The notes under the pieces were generated by a model. It was given only the letters and a program-made list of their open reading frames with translations, had not been told where the DNA came from and ran no database searches. The position numbers and the translations under genes are program-made. Shown here one piece after another: positions 38,171 to 41,482 of a stretch of 64,000 nt of DNA. The stretch lies in NCBI RefSeq assembly GCF_016863395.1, contig NZ_BOOU01000077.1, forward strand, positions 1 to 64,000, given 5' to 3'. This stretch comes from Sphaerisporangium rufum (lineage in GTDB: Bacteria; Actinomycetota; Actinomycetes; Streptosporangiales; Streptosporangiaceae). Within the stretch, counting starts at the first letter, position 1; every line of letters begins with the position of its first letter.

Positions 38171-38305
38171 ACGCCCCTCCGAAGGATCGACTTCCCCCGG
38201 CTTATCGCGCCCGCCCGCCCCGGCGCTACCCCCGCCCGGGCCGGTGGACCGTCTTAGCCGGTCCACCGGCAGGATGAGGATCGTCACCTGCCAGGGGCCG
38301 GGCGG

Positions 38306-38953
38306 TCACCCGGGGCGGGTGCCGGAATCCTCGTCGAGGAACTCTCCGGACACGAGCCGCGGGAGCAGCCATTCGTGGAGTCGCTCGGACGACCGGATGA
38401 GATCACGATGTGCGGCGATTCTTCTCTCCAAGGCGCCGAGTATGTCGGCGACTGACGACTGAACGCCGGGCGGTGCCATAACGAACGGCAGATCGCGTAG
38501 GACCTGGGCGCTGACGCTCGGGATGGCGGAGTACCTGGCGTTCACCCTGATCCAATCTCGGACCTTCGGATGATGAAGGTAGCGCAGCGCATATCCGGCG
38601 TTCACCGAGTCGGCGAGTCGCAACCTCATGCATGAAGTACCCAGAATCCACCCCTCGTTCTCCGGCCCGGCCAGAGCGGCACGCCCGAGGTCGCCCGTCC
38701 GTACGCAGATCAGGTCGCCGGCACGGATGCGATAGCGCGTGAGTCGGCCCGCTGTGCCGGCGGATACACTTCTGGCCGCCCGTCGGTCGAGAGAGAACCA
38801 ATTGACCTCGCTTGGCGTGACCACGGGGACGCCCTTGTCGCCGACCGGTAGTAGTTCAGATTTAACGTTCGCAGGTCCAGGCTGGATATCGGCGACATCT
38901 CCCAACCGGAGTTGGCGCCACCCGTCCGGAACCGGGCCGATCACCGTCTCCAT
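38306..38953 (-). CDS. Single-TRD type I specificity subunit (half HsdS)
   Basis: A 215-residue HsdS-type protein. It has one target-recognition domain (VPDGWRQLRLGDVADIQPG, RIRAGDLICVRTGDLGRAAL, SVSAQVLRDLPFVMAP) and one central conserved helix (QSSVADILGALERRIAAH). A complete HsdS has two of each and about 400 residues, so this half would have to dimerise and would read a palindromic site. Its start overlaps the end of the methylase gene by 13 bases. No HsdR gene is present. Confidence 0.82.
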   Translation of the reverse strand: METVIGPVPDGWRQLRLGDVADIQPGPANVKSELLPVGDKGVPVVTPSEVNWFSLDRRAARSVSAGTAGRLTRYRIRAGDLICVRTGDLGRAALAGPENEGWILGTSCMRLRLADSVNAGYALRYLHHPKVRDWIRVNARYSAIPSVSAQVLRDLPFVMAPPGVQSSVADILGALERRIAAHRDLIRSSERLHEWLLPRLVSGEFLDEDSGTRPG

Positions 38954-40476
38954 TCGGAGATCCTCTTCAGCTGCTCGCGGGCATGCGCGTCGGCGATCTC
39001 GACGGCACGCTCGGCCAAGGCCAGGTCACGTAGGTGGTCGGCGAAAGTCGAATCATCCTGCGACACCGACATCCTGGAGATGTAGCGGGCCGGACTGAGA
39101 TCGTAATCATGTTCCTCGATCTCCGGCAGCCGGGCCAGGCGACTCCGCTCTCCGGGCGCCATTGAGGCCAGGAGCCGGATCTCCGGGCCGCTGAGCTCTC
39201 GCCGGGAACGCCCGACCATATTGCCGAGGTCGGTACCGTCCACCAGCAGAACGCTCTGTGGACCGGTTTTTCGTAGAACCCAGAGCGTCACCGGGATGGC
39301 GGTGGTGACGAACAGTCCTGGCGGCAGTGCGATGATCCGTTCGATGACGCCGGCCCGGACCATGGCGGCTCTGATGTCGCGCTCTGCGCCCTGTGAGAAC
39401 GACGACCCGTTCGGCATGATCACGGCACCTCGGCCATCGTCCGCCAGACGCTCGTAAATATCGCAGAGCCACGCAGTGTTAATGCTTTTTGCGGGGATCG
39501 TCCCGAAGCGTCCACGCCATGGTCCTTCTTTGGCGTGCAGATTGAACGGTGGATTGGTCACCACCACCTGGTAGCGGCGTCGAACTCCATCAGGCGACGG
39601 CGCGGCGTCCGGCGTGATCTCACCCTTCCTCCCGCGGAGCGCCAGGGTCAGCGAGGCCGTTCGGGCTGATCGCTCCCACAGCGCATGGCCGCGTACCGCT
39701 TTCCGCGTGACACCGGCGATGCCGGCCAGCAGACCTCCGTTGCCACAGCACGGGTCGCACACCTCGTCATCCGGTGCGGGAGAGGTCACTGCCGATATGA
39801 GCTCGACGAGCGATCGCGGAGTGTAGTGCTCCACGCTTTTTACCAGCCATTCGGCCGCGACGTCCGTAAAGGCGGCCACAAGTGCCGACCATCCAGAGTC
39901 ATCAGTCGGCGGTATGAGGGTGTCAAGGCCTGCCAGCAGGTCGTGGGAGACCTGACTTCTGATGGCTTTCGGGCCGATGTGCTCGAACTCGCTGCCCCGG
40001 CGCCCCAGGAATTCCCGGATATCCGGATACGCCGTCACTTCGCGGTCTCGCTCTTTGAGAGCGGTCCATCCGTTCTCGTCGCGGAGCCGAAGGACCAGCA
40101 GTTCGAGAAGTACGTCTGGATCGCTGTTGGGTATCTGAAAGGAAGGTAGTCGCAGCAGACGTGTCAACAAATCTCTCATCTGCGCCGTGTATCCAGGATG
40201 GCCCGCCGACCCGCCGGTCGCTCGCAACTGATCACCATAAGTCGCCCGAAACCGATCACCATAAGTGCGGCCGCCGGCTTCGTCCGGACGCAGAGATGCC
40301 CGATCGATTCTACGGCCATCGAGCCAGCTTGCGACTTCGTCGGCACGAAATTGTTCGCGTCCCTCTAGGGAGACCGGTTCCGGAAAGCTGTCGCGATGGC
40401 GGCGGCGCCAATTGCTGACGGCTCCCGGCCCGACCCCGGCTCGGCGGGCGATCTCCGTGAGGGATACCAATGTCAC
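38941..40476 (-). CDS. N6-adenine DNA methylase with N-terminal HTH (HsdM-type)
   Basis: A 511-residue methylase from GTG 40476, 8 bases after the HEPN gene stop and preceded by AGGAG. Residues 4-60 are an AlpA/MerR-like helix-turn-helix (LTEIARRAGVGPGAVSNWRR, then QFRADEVASWLDGR). The HsdM catalytic domain follows with DPCCGNGGLL (motif I, SAM) and NPPF (motif IV, residues 308-311), then FVTTAIPVTLWVLRK. It should methylate adenine with the HsdS downstream. The N-terminal DNA-binding part is unusual and may control its own operon. Confidence 0.88.
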   Translation of the reverse strand: MTLVSLTEIARRAGVGPGAVSNWRRRHRDSFPEPVSLEGREQFRADEVASWLDGRRIDRASLRPDEAGGRTYGDRFRATYGDQLRATGGSAGHPGYTAQMRDLLTRLLRLPSFQIPNSDPDVLLELLVLRLRDENGWTALKERDREVTAYPDIREFLGRRGSEFEHIGPKAIRSQVSHDLLAGLDTLIPPTDDSGWSALVAAFTDVAAEWLVKSVEHYTPRSLVELISAVTSPAPDDEVCDPCCGNGGLLAGIAGVTRKAVRGHALWERSARTASLTLALRGRKGEITPDAAPSPDGVRRRYQVVVTNPPFNLHAKEGPWRGRFGTIPAKSINTAWLCDIYERLADDGRGAVIMPNGSSFSQGAERDIRAAMVRAGVIERIIALPPGLFVTTAIPVTLWVLRKTGPQSVLLVDGTDLGNMVGRSRRELSGPEIRLLASMAPGERSRLARLPEIEEHDYDLSPARYISRMSVSQDDSTFADHLRDLALAERAVEIADAHAREQLKRISEWRR

Positions 40477-40484
40477 GCGGTCTC

Positions 40485-41159
40485 CTAGAAGCGGGGTGCC
40501 ATGAGACCGCCGCACACACCGCTTTTGCGTCCCAGCGCTTCGGCGACGCGGTCGAGATGAGGAAGGCGATACGCCGCCTGCGGCTCGAGGTAGCCGAGCA
40601 TCCGGCAGATCTTCGCGTAGTCCGCCGCGAGGTCACGATGGTGGATCGGCTCGTGATGCATGATCCGGTTGCGCAGCAGCACGAGCGACAGGAGGCCGTC
40701 ATGGAGGGCGCGACGGGGCTCACGGGAGTCCGCGAAGGCACGATGGACCACGGGCACCCACAGAGTGCGGTCGTAACGTCGGCTCAGCAGGGAGACCCAG
40801 AAACCGAAAGAGAGTTCGGTGACCACGTCATCGGGACCGGGGACACGGCCGGGGCGCTGTCTCACGTTCTCTCGCACGCGAGTGGCCGCCTCGCGGACCT
40901 TGCGTTCGTTGTGATCCCCCAGATTGGTGGCGTGCCACCAGTCGGCCCGCGTGAAGTGGGTCGTCAACGTGTCGTGGAGAACGTTGCGGAGACAGATTTC
41001 CAGGAAGTGCAGCGGGCCGTAGAACGCGGCCGCCGCCTCCACGTTCCAGTAGTACAGGCGTTCGGCACGCTCCGCGTCTCCCGCCGAGGCTCGCAGGTAC
41101 GGCGCCAGCCGAGAGTCCGAGAGGCCACGGCGTAACCAGGCGGGCAGTTGCGGGCTCAC
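40485..41159 (-). CDS. HEPN-type Abi protein (probable RNase)
   Basis: A 224-residue Abi-like/HEPN protein from GTG 41159, first gene of the operon. Helical throughout; the C-terminal segment LLRNRIMHHEPIHHRDLAADY holds RNRIMH (R163 to H168), the R-x4-6-H active site of HEPN endoribonucleases such as abortive-infection and RloC/PrrC-type enzymes. No ribosome site precedes the GTG. Codon and base use are lower in GC than in purD nearby. RNA cleavage and a defence role are inferred from family and position. Confidence 0.85.
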   Translation of the reverse strand: MSPQLPAWLRRGLSDSRLAPYLRASAGDAERAERLYYWNVEAAAAFYGPLHFLEICLRNVLHDTLTTHFTRADWWHATNLGDHNERKVREAATRVRENVRQRPGRVPGPDDVVTELSFGFWVSLLSRRYDRTLWVPVVHRAFADSREPRRALHDGLLSLVLLRNRIMHHEPIHHRDLAADYAKICRMLGYLEPQAAYRLPHLDRVAEALGRKSGVCGGLMAPRF

Positions 41160-41204
41160 AGGTTCGTCCGGGTGACGGAACGGCGTGGTACTATCGGGCT
41201 GTAA

Positions 41205-41242
41205 GCCCCGGGTTCGCCTCTGCTCAGCATGCCACCCGGGGC
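41205..41242. promoter_or_regulatory. Inverted repeat before the HEPN operon
   Basis: GCCCCGGGT (41205-41213) and ACCCGGGGC (41234-41242) are a perfect 9-bp inverted repeat 46-83 bases before the HEPN start. On the minus strand it lies upstream of a TAGTAC/GATAGT -10-like site, so it could be an operator for the HTH of the methylase. Confidence 0.4.
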
Positions 41243-41314
41243 ACGGCCATTTCTGGGCCCCTCTTTCGAACCCGCCGCGTCATCGTATCTTGGTGCGGCC
41301 GCCGCGGCAAGTGC

Positions 41315-41340
41315 ATTCACAATACTCAAGAACTGTGAAT
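41315..41340. promoter_or_regulatory. AT-rich inverted repeat in the purD-HEPN gap
   Basis: ATTCACA and TGTGAAT face each other across 12 bases. The gap 41160-41482 contains no gene; besides this it holds the GC repeat at 41205. Confidence 0.35.
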
Positions 41341-41482
41341 CTGGACTGCCTGGTGGCGCCGGCCCGAGCCTCTGGGAAGAGAGCGAATGATCAGTGTGGC
41401 GGAGATCAGGAACAGGTCACGCGGCTCGCTTGCCTGTCTTGTGGCGATCGGTCCACGGTCGGCTCGGGCCTGAGCGGCGGTA

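What the first reader, a model, noticed from the sequence alone, without database searches (positions are those of the whole stretch)
38306..41242. HEPN / HTH-methylase / half-HsdS operon without a restriction subunit
Three minus-strand genes are tightly packed: an Abi-type HEPN protein with an intact R-x4-H (R163, H168), a DNA adenine methylase with an N-terminal DNA-binding HTH, and a single-TRD HsdS. No HsdR is near. Base composition is lower in GC than in the neighbours. A perfect 9-bp inverted repeat lies before the first gene. Anticodon nucleases such as PrrC are known to be held silent by type I enzymes, so here a HEPN RNase could be guarded by a methylase complex, with the HTH giving autoregulation. 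This exact layout is not one I recognise.
Basis: partly seen in the sequence, partly recalled or inferred. Interest (0 to 1): 0.8.

Follow-up and report, generated by a model that had tools for sequence, protein, structure and literature searches.

The report
RNA-guarded toxin with methylase operon
A bacterial operon pairs a likely self-harming RNA-cutting protein with DNA-methylating proteins, and a small folded RNA encoded on the opposite strand just upstream, rather than the methylase, is the toxin's steadiest partner and probably restrains it.

Summary
The three genes are real and co-conserved. In a HEPN clade of 47 loci (eight named actinobacterial families), 36 carry HTH-methylase and half-HsdS directly downstream (25 separate, 11 fused), with no HsdR homologue found nearby; R163/H168 are invariant in 47 of 47. 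No Rfam family comes near its threshold. The HEPN model's best PDB match is AbiF bound to its RNA antitoxin (8vz6). Nine clade members keep HEPN and RNA without M-S, so M-S is not the obligate guard. A second promoter, often with an inverted repeat, occurs in 32 of 35 M-bearing loci and 0 of 9 solo loci, pointing to HTH autoregulation. Best reading: an AbiF-type toxin with opposite-strand RNA antitoxin under a methylase-repressor. New variant of a known kind; no experiment yet.

The parts
38306..38953 (-). half-HsdS (single target-recognition domain)
   Evidence: Pfam PF01420 4e-9, PADLOC Specificity_I 4e-27; fused in frame to M in 11 of 36 complete loci
38941..40515 (-). HTH + N6-adenine methyltransferase (M); start may be about 40476
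   Evidence: Pfam PF02384 7e-41; NPPF in 36 of 36 M proteins; fused-MS model of relative L006 matches type I M structures
40246..40470 (-). HTH-like N-terminal domain of M, conserved (VxRxAVTNW)
   Evidence: alignment A2; mean pairwise identity 51% against 32% for the M body; called HTH by its pattern and model helices, no Pfam hit
40485..41159 (-). AbiF-like HEPN RNase toxin, R163/H168
   Evidence: PADLOC PD-T4-5 6e-13; AF2 pLDDT 95.6; Foldseek top hit 8vz6 AbiF; R163/H168 47 of 47
41201..41251 (+). structured small RNA, opposite strand; stem arms 41205-41212 and 41235-41242
   Evidence: 46-row alignment A4, covariation, model R1 75 bits (this row is in the model)
41186..41194 (+). extended -10 promoter of the small RNA (TG 41186-87, TACTAT 41189-94)
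   Evidence: TAnnnT 6-7 nt before the RNA in 46 of 46 loci, shuffle rate 7.4%
41310..41339 (-). HEPN-operon promoter: -35 TTCACA (41334-41339), -10 TGCACT (41310-41315), inside a dyad ATTCAC/GTGAAT (41335-41340, 41315-41320)
   Evidence: the window's own dyad is read by eye and was not tested against chance
38239..41482 (.). whole insertion between a 393-aa protein gene and purD
   Evidence: 10 of 10 congeneric genomes with the flanks lack it; boundaries from L062, left end uncertain by about 150-300 nt in the others

Best explanation
The core is a two-part toxin-antitoxin/abortive-infection module: an AbiF-type HEPN RNase and a ~50-nt hairpin RNA made from its own promoter on the opposite strand, just upstream of the toxin start. 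The RNA is inferred to hold the HEPN inactive by binding it, as AbiF RNA antitoxins do, and, because it is complementary to the predicted toxin mRNA leader, may also act on that mRNA. In the window's clade an HTH-methylase plus half-HsdS was added downstream. It is inferred to assemble as an M2S2-like methyltransferase that marks the host DNA, and its HTH to repress the operon at an inverted repeat over the upstream promoter. When infection lowers the antitoxin (short-lived RNA, host transcription shut-off) or pulls the methylase-repressor off its operator, toxin exceeds RNA, cuts RNA and stops growth. Shown: gene order, conservation, RNA structure and promoter box, co-occurrences. Inferred: transcription itself, RNA-protein inhibition, repression, trigger, phage defence.
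For: HEPN fold matches AbiF-ncRNA dimer 8vz6 first, probability 1.00. RNA present 46 of 46 in the clade, 41 of 53 elsewhere on the opposite strand. 7 of 14 pairs changed on both sides, 0 of 500 shuffles. TAnnnT at fixed spacing 46 of 46 and in 42 of 42 distinct copies outside the alignment, shuffle rate 7.1%. In relatives L157 and L160 terminators, and in L160 a TTGACA-17-TATGAT promoter, point the same way. Orphan RNA copies keep the box. Toxin promoter pattern 32 of 35 with M, 0 of 9 without. No HTH-covering M elsewhere in the nine solo genomes. AbiF of C. difficile is neutralised by RNA RCd22 through direct binding (PMC12373285: abstract, section 7 and part 1 of section 13 read).
Against: No expression, binding, toxicity or phage data. 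The characterised C. difficile AbiF RNA is on the toxin's strand, here opposite. One pair (A4 columns 14-44) is unpaired in 10 rows on the opposite strand but would mostly be U-G on the toxin strand; the measure 'further pair types' is not clearly above its shuffles (54 of 500 as high). The AbiF structural match is distant (E 6e-3, TM 0.60/0.47, 12% identity) and the window HEPN has no Pfam hit at E 0.01. No terminator or sigma-70 promoter is found around the window RNA by a simple scan. R1 missed 11 of 53 loci, matched one on the toxin strand (L041), and missed 5 of 13 plasmid/phage loci, L160 among them. The promoter patterns were written after seeing the sequences.
Confidence: 0.6

Rival explanations
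1. Methylation-sensing titratable repressor: M-S without R tells self from non-self. Host sites are methylated and release the complex; unmethylated phage DNA (or a DNA-mimic anti-restriction protein) soaks it up, the HTH leaves the operator, and the toxin is switched on.
For: No HsdR found in 36 loci; HTH fused to M; toxin promoter/inverted repeat co-occurs with M; at one chromosomal spot three pairs keep flanks, promoter, HEPN and HTH at 86-88% DNA identity while the M body drops to 33-38% aa, i.e. the sensor is exchanged under a fixed output; model of fused M-S matches, second in rank, an MTase solved with the DNA mimic Ocr (7eew).
Against: No methylation or binding data. The exchanged part is M body more than the TRD (S 46-66% in the same pairs), unlike classical specificity swapping. 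In a fourth pair (L086/L094) the promoter stretch is not in the aligned block. Operator identity tracks S and M body as well as HTH (0.48, 0.40, 0.41).
Confidence: 0.2
2. PrrC-like guard: the M-S complex binds the HEPN protein and holds it silent until anti-restriction proteins strike.
For: Tight operon; PrrC/type I precedent (PMC3710099 passages); 2 loci link HEPN with hsdMSR.
Against: HEPN intact without M-S in 9 of 47 clade loci and in sister clades, with no HTH-covering M elsewhere in those nine genomes (7 of the 9 do have other N6 methylases); the RNA is the constant partner.
Confidence: 0.1
3. Purely type I-like antisense or transcriptional interference: the RNA only blocks the toxin mRNA leader and never binds HEPN.
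For: The predicted toxin promoter lies beyond the RNA, so the mRNA leader would be fully complementary to it.
Against: Internal loop CGCCUCUG and inner stem are conserved from actinobacteria to Bosea and Ancylobacter more than antisense pairing needs; orphan RNA copies without a toxin; AbiF precedent.
Confidence: 0.2
4. The structure works on the toxin strand as a leader/attenuator, as RCd22 does in C. difficile.
For: AbiF precedent; one covarying pair fits the toxin strand better; one locus (L041) matches R1 on the toxin strand.
Against: Promoter box on the other strand 46 of 46; no conserved TAnnnT at one place on the toxin strand (best 8 of 46); terminators of L157 and L160 on the other strand.
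Confidence: 0.07
5. M-S is cargo: an orphan epigenetic methylase stabilised by an addiction module.
For: Loci with toxin and RNA but no M-S beside the same neighbour; insertion absent from relatives.
Against: Within the clade the toxin promoter pattern appears only with M or an HTH stub; 36 of 47 retention over a deep tree.
Confidence: 0.15

Closest known systems
AbiF with RNA antitoxin (RCd22/AbiF Cd; PbAbiF-ncRNA 8vz6; Rfam RF03085)
   Same: AbiF-type HEPN fold, R-x4-H, conserved structured RNA just upstream
   Different: RNA here is on the opposite strand, about 50 nt, one hairpin with its own extended -10; no RF03085 match; an M-S operon follows
PD-T4-5 (E. coli plasmid anti-phage gene, AbiF/D relative)
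   Same: only PADLOC hit of the HEPN (6e-13)
   Different: described as a plasmid-borne gene (PMC9519451, passages); no methylase mentioned there
PrrC/PrrI (anticodon nuclease with type I R-M)
   Same: HEPN RNase linked to hsdM/hsdS
   Different: no NTPase domain, no HsdR, RNA partner instead
Half-HsdS type I methyltransferases (Vibrio vulnificus MTase with Ocr, 7eew; that its S has one TRD is recalled)
   Same: M plus single-TRD S
   Different: no R here; HTH added; HEPN is the first gene
MADS
   Same: M and S subunits resemble MAD2/MAD5 weakly
   Different: far below NCBIfam cut-offs; no other MADS genes inside the 3.2 kb, not searched beyond

Membership tests
AbiF RNA toxin-antitoxin | HEPN fold like AbiF with R-x4-6-H | tested here: met
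   8vz6 top Foldseek hit, prob 1.00, TM 0.60, E 6e-3; motif 47 of 47
AbiF RNA toxin-antitoxin | Pfam Abi_2 membership | tested here: inconclusive
   no Pfam hit for window HEPN; relatives L157, L163, L133, L158 hit PF07751
AbiF RNA toxin-antitoxin | conserved ncRNA upstream of the toxin | tested here: met
   46 of 46 and 41 of 53, but opposite strand
AbiF RNA toxin-antitoxin | ncRNA of Rfam RF03085 | tested here: not met
   not among the matches at E up to 5 and 10 in the window or up to 1 in six relatives
AbiF RNA toxin-antitoxin | RNA binds and neutralises toxin | not testable with these tools
   needs bench work
Type I restriction-modification | HsdM and HsdS | tested here: met
Type I restriction-modification | HsdR in the locus | tested here: not met
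   0 of 36 loci (three queries); present in L026 and L113, outside the clade
PrrC anticodon nuclease | ABC/NTPase domain fused to HEPN | tested here: not met
   224-aa all-helical HEPN only
Type III TA (ToxIN kind; features recalled) | toxin-strand repeat RNA before the toxin | tested here: not met
   single hairpin, opposite strand

The most novel reading that the evidence does not exclude
A restriction system without a nuclease: an HTH-methyltransferase-TRD complex acts as a methylation-sensing, titratable repressor, so that unmethylated invading DNA (or a DNA-mimic inhibitor) pulls it off the operator and releases an AbiF-type RNase toxin from its opposite-strand RNA antitoxin. Self/non-self is read as DNA methylation and answered by RNA cleavage.
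Probability: 0.2. Interest if true: 0.92.

Novelty: new variant of a known kind. Interest (0 to 1): 0.76.

Why it matters
AbiF with its RNA antitoxin is reported as an ancestor of Cas13. This adds a small RNA family that matches nothing in Rfam 15, on the opposite strand and shared by actinobacterial and alphaproteobacterial relatives, and it ties an RNA-guarded RNase to a methylase without a nuclease, which makes a direct test possible of whether DNA methylation can control an RNA-cleaving suicide response.

Tried and rejected
PDB sequence search with the HEPN profile gave only DARPin-type chance matches; rejected. Rfam gave only chance matches: E 2.9-4.1 elsewhere in the region, and two archaeal H/ACA models at E 3.6 and 5.3 over the hairpin, 14-15 bits against gathering 47-55. 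A tRNA-Leu likeness of the element occurred to me from memory and was not pursued; ARAGORN finds no tRNA in the window or in L150/L151. The simple sigma-70/terminator scan found nothing in the window region, L165 and L161. Orientation by wobble pairs is mixed and was not used as proof. Operator-HTH correlation is not specific. TRD swapping was expected and not found in the classical form: M body is the least conserved part. A regex for helicase motifs missed HsdR even in L113 and was replaced by tblastn. The strict toxin-promoter pattern gave 27 of 35 M-S loci and 0 of 9 solo; the relaxed one (32 of 35) was written after seeing the misses. One search printed 43 of 43 promoter boxes because L027 was counted twice; one search gives 42 of 42. 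Rows dropped: 12 duplicate loci, the window copies L033/L048/L056, L058/L059, L042/L046 (HEPN with an in-frame stop) and L044/L045 (no profile hit) before or; L027 (broken HEPN), L041, L043 from the tree; L098 from RNA and promoter counts (contig edge); L026 and L113 from the M-S counts; 8 of the 79 match rows (mostly partial) were not fetched. L017, one of the 11 fused loci, has no HTH in the frame read. Fisher's p (3e-7) treats related loci as independent; shuffles keep base content only.
Full report
Observation. The three minus-strand genes are present at the stated places: HEPN 40485-41159 with LRNRIMHHEP, HTH-N6 methylase 38941-40515 with NPPF, half-HsdS 38306-38953. GC falls to 64%. The stretch is an insertion: the same two flanking genes (a 393-aa protein and purD) lie next to each other without it in 10 of 10 congeneric genomes, the best boundary being 38239-41482. 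A congener (G296, = L001/L071) has the same cassette (HEPN 83%, M 66%, S 70-71%) on another contig than its purD site. It therefore seems to move; no integrase gene lies inside the 3.2 kb, and none was searched for outside.

Co-conservation. One scan of genome contigs gave 32 HEPN loci; a search of 341 family genomes found the HEPN in 72, and 70 of its 79 match rows were fetched besides the window. After removing 12 duplicates and the other rows named under Tried and rejected, 100 loci were classed and 97 put in a tree. The window lies in a supported clade of 47 (99/98) whose named members belong to eight actinobacterial families. In 36 of 47 the HTH-methylase and half-S follow directly on the same strand, 25 as two genes and 11 as one fused frame; 2 have a decayed or cut M (L021, L075); 9 have HEPN alone (L004, L013, L020, L025, L099, L101-L104). 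R163, H168, E170 and P171 are invariant in 47 of 47. NPPF is present in 36 of 36 M, but in 17 of 36 the first glycine of the SAM motif is arginine (counted). No HsdR homologue is found in the 36 loci with three HsdR queries. A control search of the nine solo genomes found no match covering the HTH of M; two (G568, G651) have no N6-methylase match at E 1e-20 and seven have other, HTH-less matches, while two M-bearing control genomes give full-length matches. Outside the clade, L026 and L113 have HEPN, a 673-684-aa HTH-methylase, then hsdM, hsdS and hsdR in line (hsdR cut by the fetched stretch in both); the other sister loci show no M of this kind.

What happens to M-S at fixed places. At one spot (neighbours read by eye as gcvT, glyA, sdaA) three pairs keep flanks, HEPN and the first ~80 codons of M at 86-88% in DNA while the rest of M drops to 33-38% protein identity and S to 46-66%; the break is at about +903 from the HEPN start. 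A fourth pair (L086/L094) breaks at +915 with M body 40%, S 65%. These pairs are few and related, perhaps three independent exchanges. Over 630 pairs mean identity is HEPN 53, HTH 51, M body 32, S 39%: M body, not the TRD, is the most diverged. In another genus (g267) four loci have HEPN + fused M-S and five have HEPN alone beside the same downstream gene (read by eye as glgX); four of the five and three of the four also share the upstream neighbour.

The RNA. Of 14 pairs, 7 have changes on both sides (one of them the doubtful pair 14-44); 98.2% of cells pair; 0 of 500 shuffles reach the paired fraction, the both-sides counts or the covariation score, but 54 of 500 reach the number of further pair types. 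In L104 and L024 the inner stem is lengthened with matching partners (by eye). A TAnnnT box stands 6-7 nt before the RNA start in 46 of 46 (shuffle rate 7.4%), with TG at the extended position in 33; in 42 of 42 distinct further copies it stands 4-9 nt before (shuffle rate 7.1%). A model (R1) finds the RNA within 300 nt upstream in 42 of the 53 HEPN loci not in the clade (L027, unplaced, included), 41 on the opposite strand and one (L041) on the same strand; of 56 hits of at least 22 bits, 51 are of this opposite-strand upstream kind (my count, clade rows included). The 11 misses are mostly the most distant HEPNs. HEPN relatives are listed on 774 plasmid and 6 phage records; of 13 such records fetched, 8 have a hit in that place, three strong (Bosea, Ancylobacter, Shinella, 43-52 bits), the rest 16-26 bits (E up to 0.06); 5 have none, and 6 of the 8 have the box. 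In Acetobacter L157 and Zymomonas L160 a terminator, and in L160 (no R1 hit) a near-perfect sigma-70 promoter, have the same direction; scans of L161 and L165 found none. Two orphan copies without a HEPN nearby exist, one in the window's own genome (G000:C41) and one in G309. No Rfam 15 family comes near its threshold.

The toxin promoter. Further upstream the toxin strand carries TTMACA, 15-19 nt, TRCRST. The strict pattern is found in 27 of 35 M-S loci and 0 of 9 solo loci of the clade (shuffle rate 0.04%); 18 of its 28 finds have an inverted repeat with arms of 5 or more over spacer and -10 (counted, no chance control). A relaxed pattern made afterwards gives 32 of 35 and 0 of 9 (shuffle rate 2.3%). 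L021, which keeps an HTH stub, has it by the strict pattern and not by the relaxed one. In the window it lies at 41310-41339. Its transcript would run through the complement of the small RNA. Operator identity correlates with HTH (0.41) but as well with M body and S, so which domain binds is open. That HTH-bearing methylases can repress their own operons (M.SsoII kind) is recalled, not looked up.

Fold. The HEPN model (pLDDT 95.6) matches PbAbiF bound to its ncRNA (8vz6) first, probability 1.00, TM 0.60, E 6e-3, 12% identity; the next hit has probability 0.21. The fused M-S model of L006 (pLDDT 79.7, pTM 0.53) matches type I M proteins and M-S enzymes, second in rank one solved with Ocr (7eew).

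Literature. PMC3710099 (passages): Abi2/AbiF/AbiD HEPN 'embedded in R-M operons', R-M-linked HEPNs proposed to act like PrrC. PMC9519451 (passages): PD-T4-5 is an AbiF/D relative with Abi defence. PMC12373285 (abstract, passages, section 7, part 1 of section 13): AbiF Cd is toxic and neutralised by RNA RCd22, same strand; it cites the AbiF-Cas13 work (Cell 2025), which I know only from that and from recall. PMC12737573 and PMC12165695 (passages): AbiF RNA antitoxin and RF03085. PMC12839542 (passages): HEPN effectors near BREX. None of the passages I saw describes an opposite-strand RNA or a HEPN/HTH-methylase/half-S operon; among the rows listed by searches (capped lists of an open-licence library) none does by title or abstract start. 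Most subscription papers are not held, so this is no proof of novelty.

Conclusion. Best supported: an AbiF-type toxin with an opposite-strand RNA antitoxin as constant core, and in this clade a methylase with an HTH that probably represses it. The PrrC-like guard is unlikely as the sole control because the toxin persists without M-S. Whether M-S senses methylation is the open and most interesting point.

Noticed in passing
L150 5478-5527 (G000:C41:59477-59526, -): Orphan copy of the small RNA (40.7 bits) with a TATCCT box in the window's own genome and no HEPN found in the 11.5 kb around it.
   Followed up: partly
L151 5343-5393 (G309:C78): Orphan copy of the small RNA at 72.6 bits without a recognisable HEPN in 11 kb.
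   Followed up: partly
L053, L054, L055: The window genome also has two HTH-N6-methylase genes without an S match beside them (C89, C3) and a separate HsdM/HsdR pair with an HsdS match between them on C52.
   Followed up: partly
L157 1-4636: Acetobacter plasmid: the HEPN gene stands divergently beside a type I M and S with a nucleotidyltransferase and its substrate-binding protein between them.
   Followed up: no
L158, L162, L164: In Bosea, Ancylobacter and Shinella plasmids a small HTH gene lies just upstream of the HEPN and its RNA.
   Followed up: no
clade M proteins: 17 of 36 M proteins have arginine for the first glycine of SAM motif I, yet all keep NPPF.
   Followed up: no
L113 4602-4654 and 4906-4958: Two copies of the small RNA upstream of one HEPN gene.
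   Followed up: no
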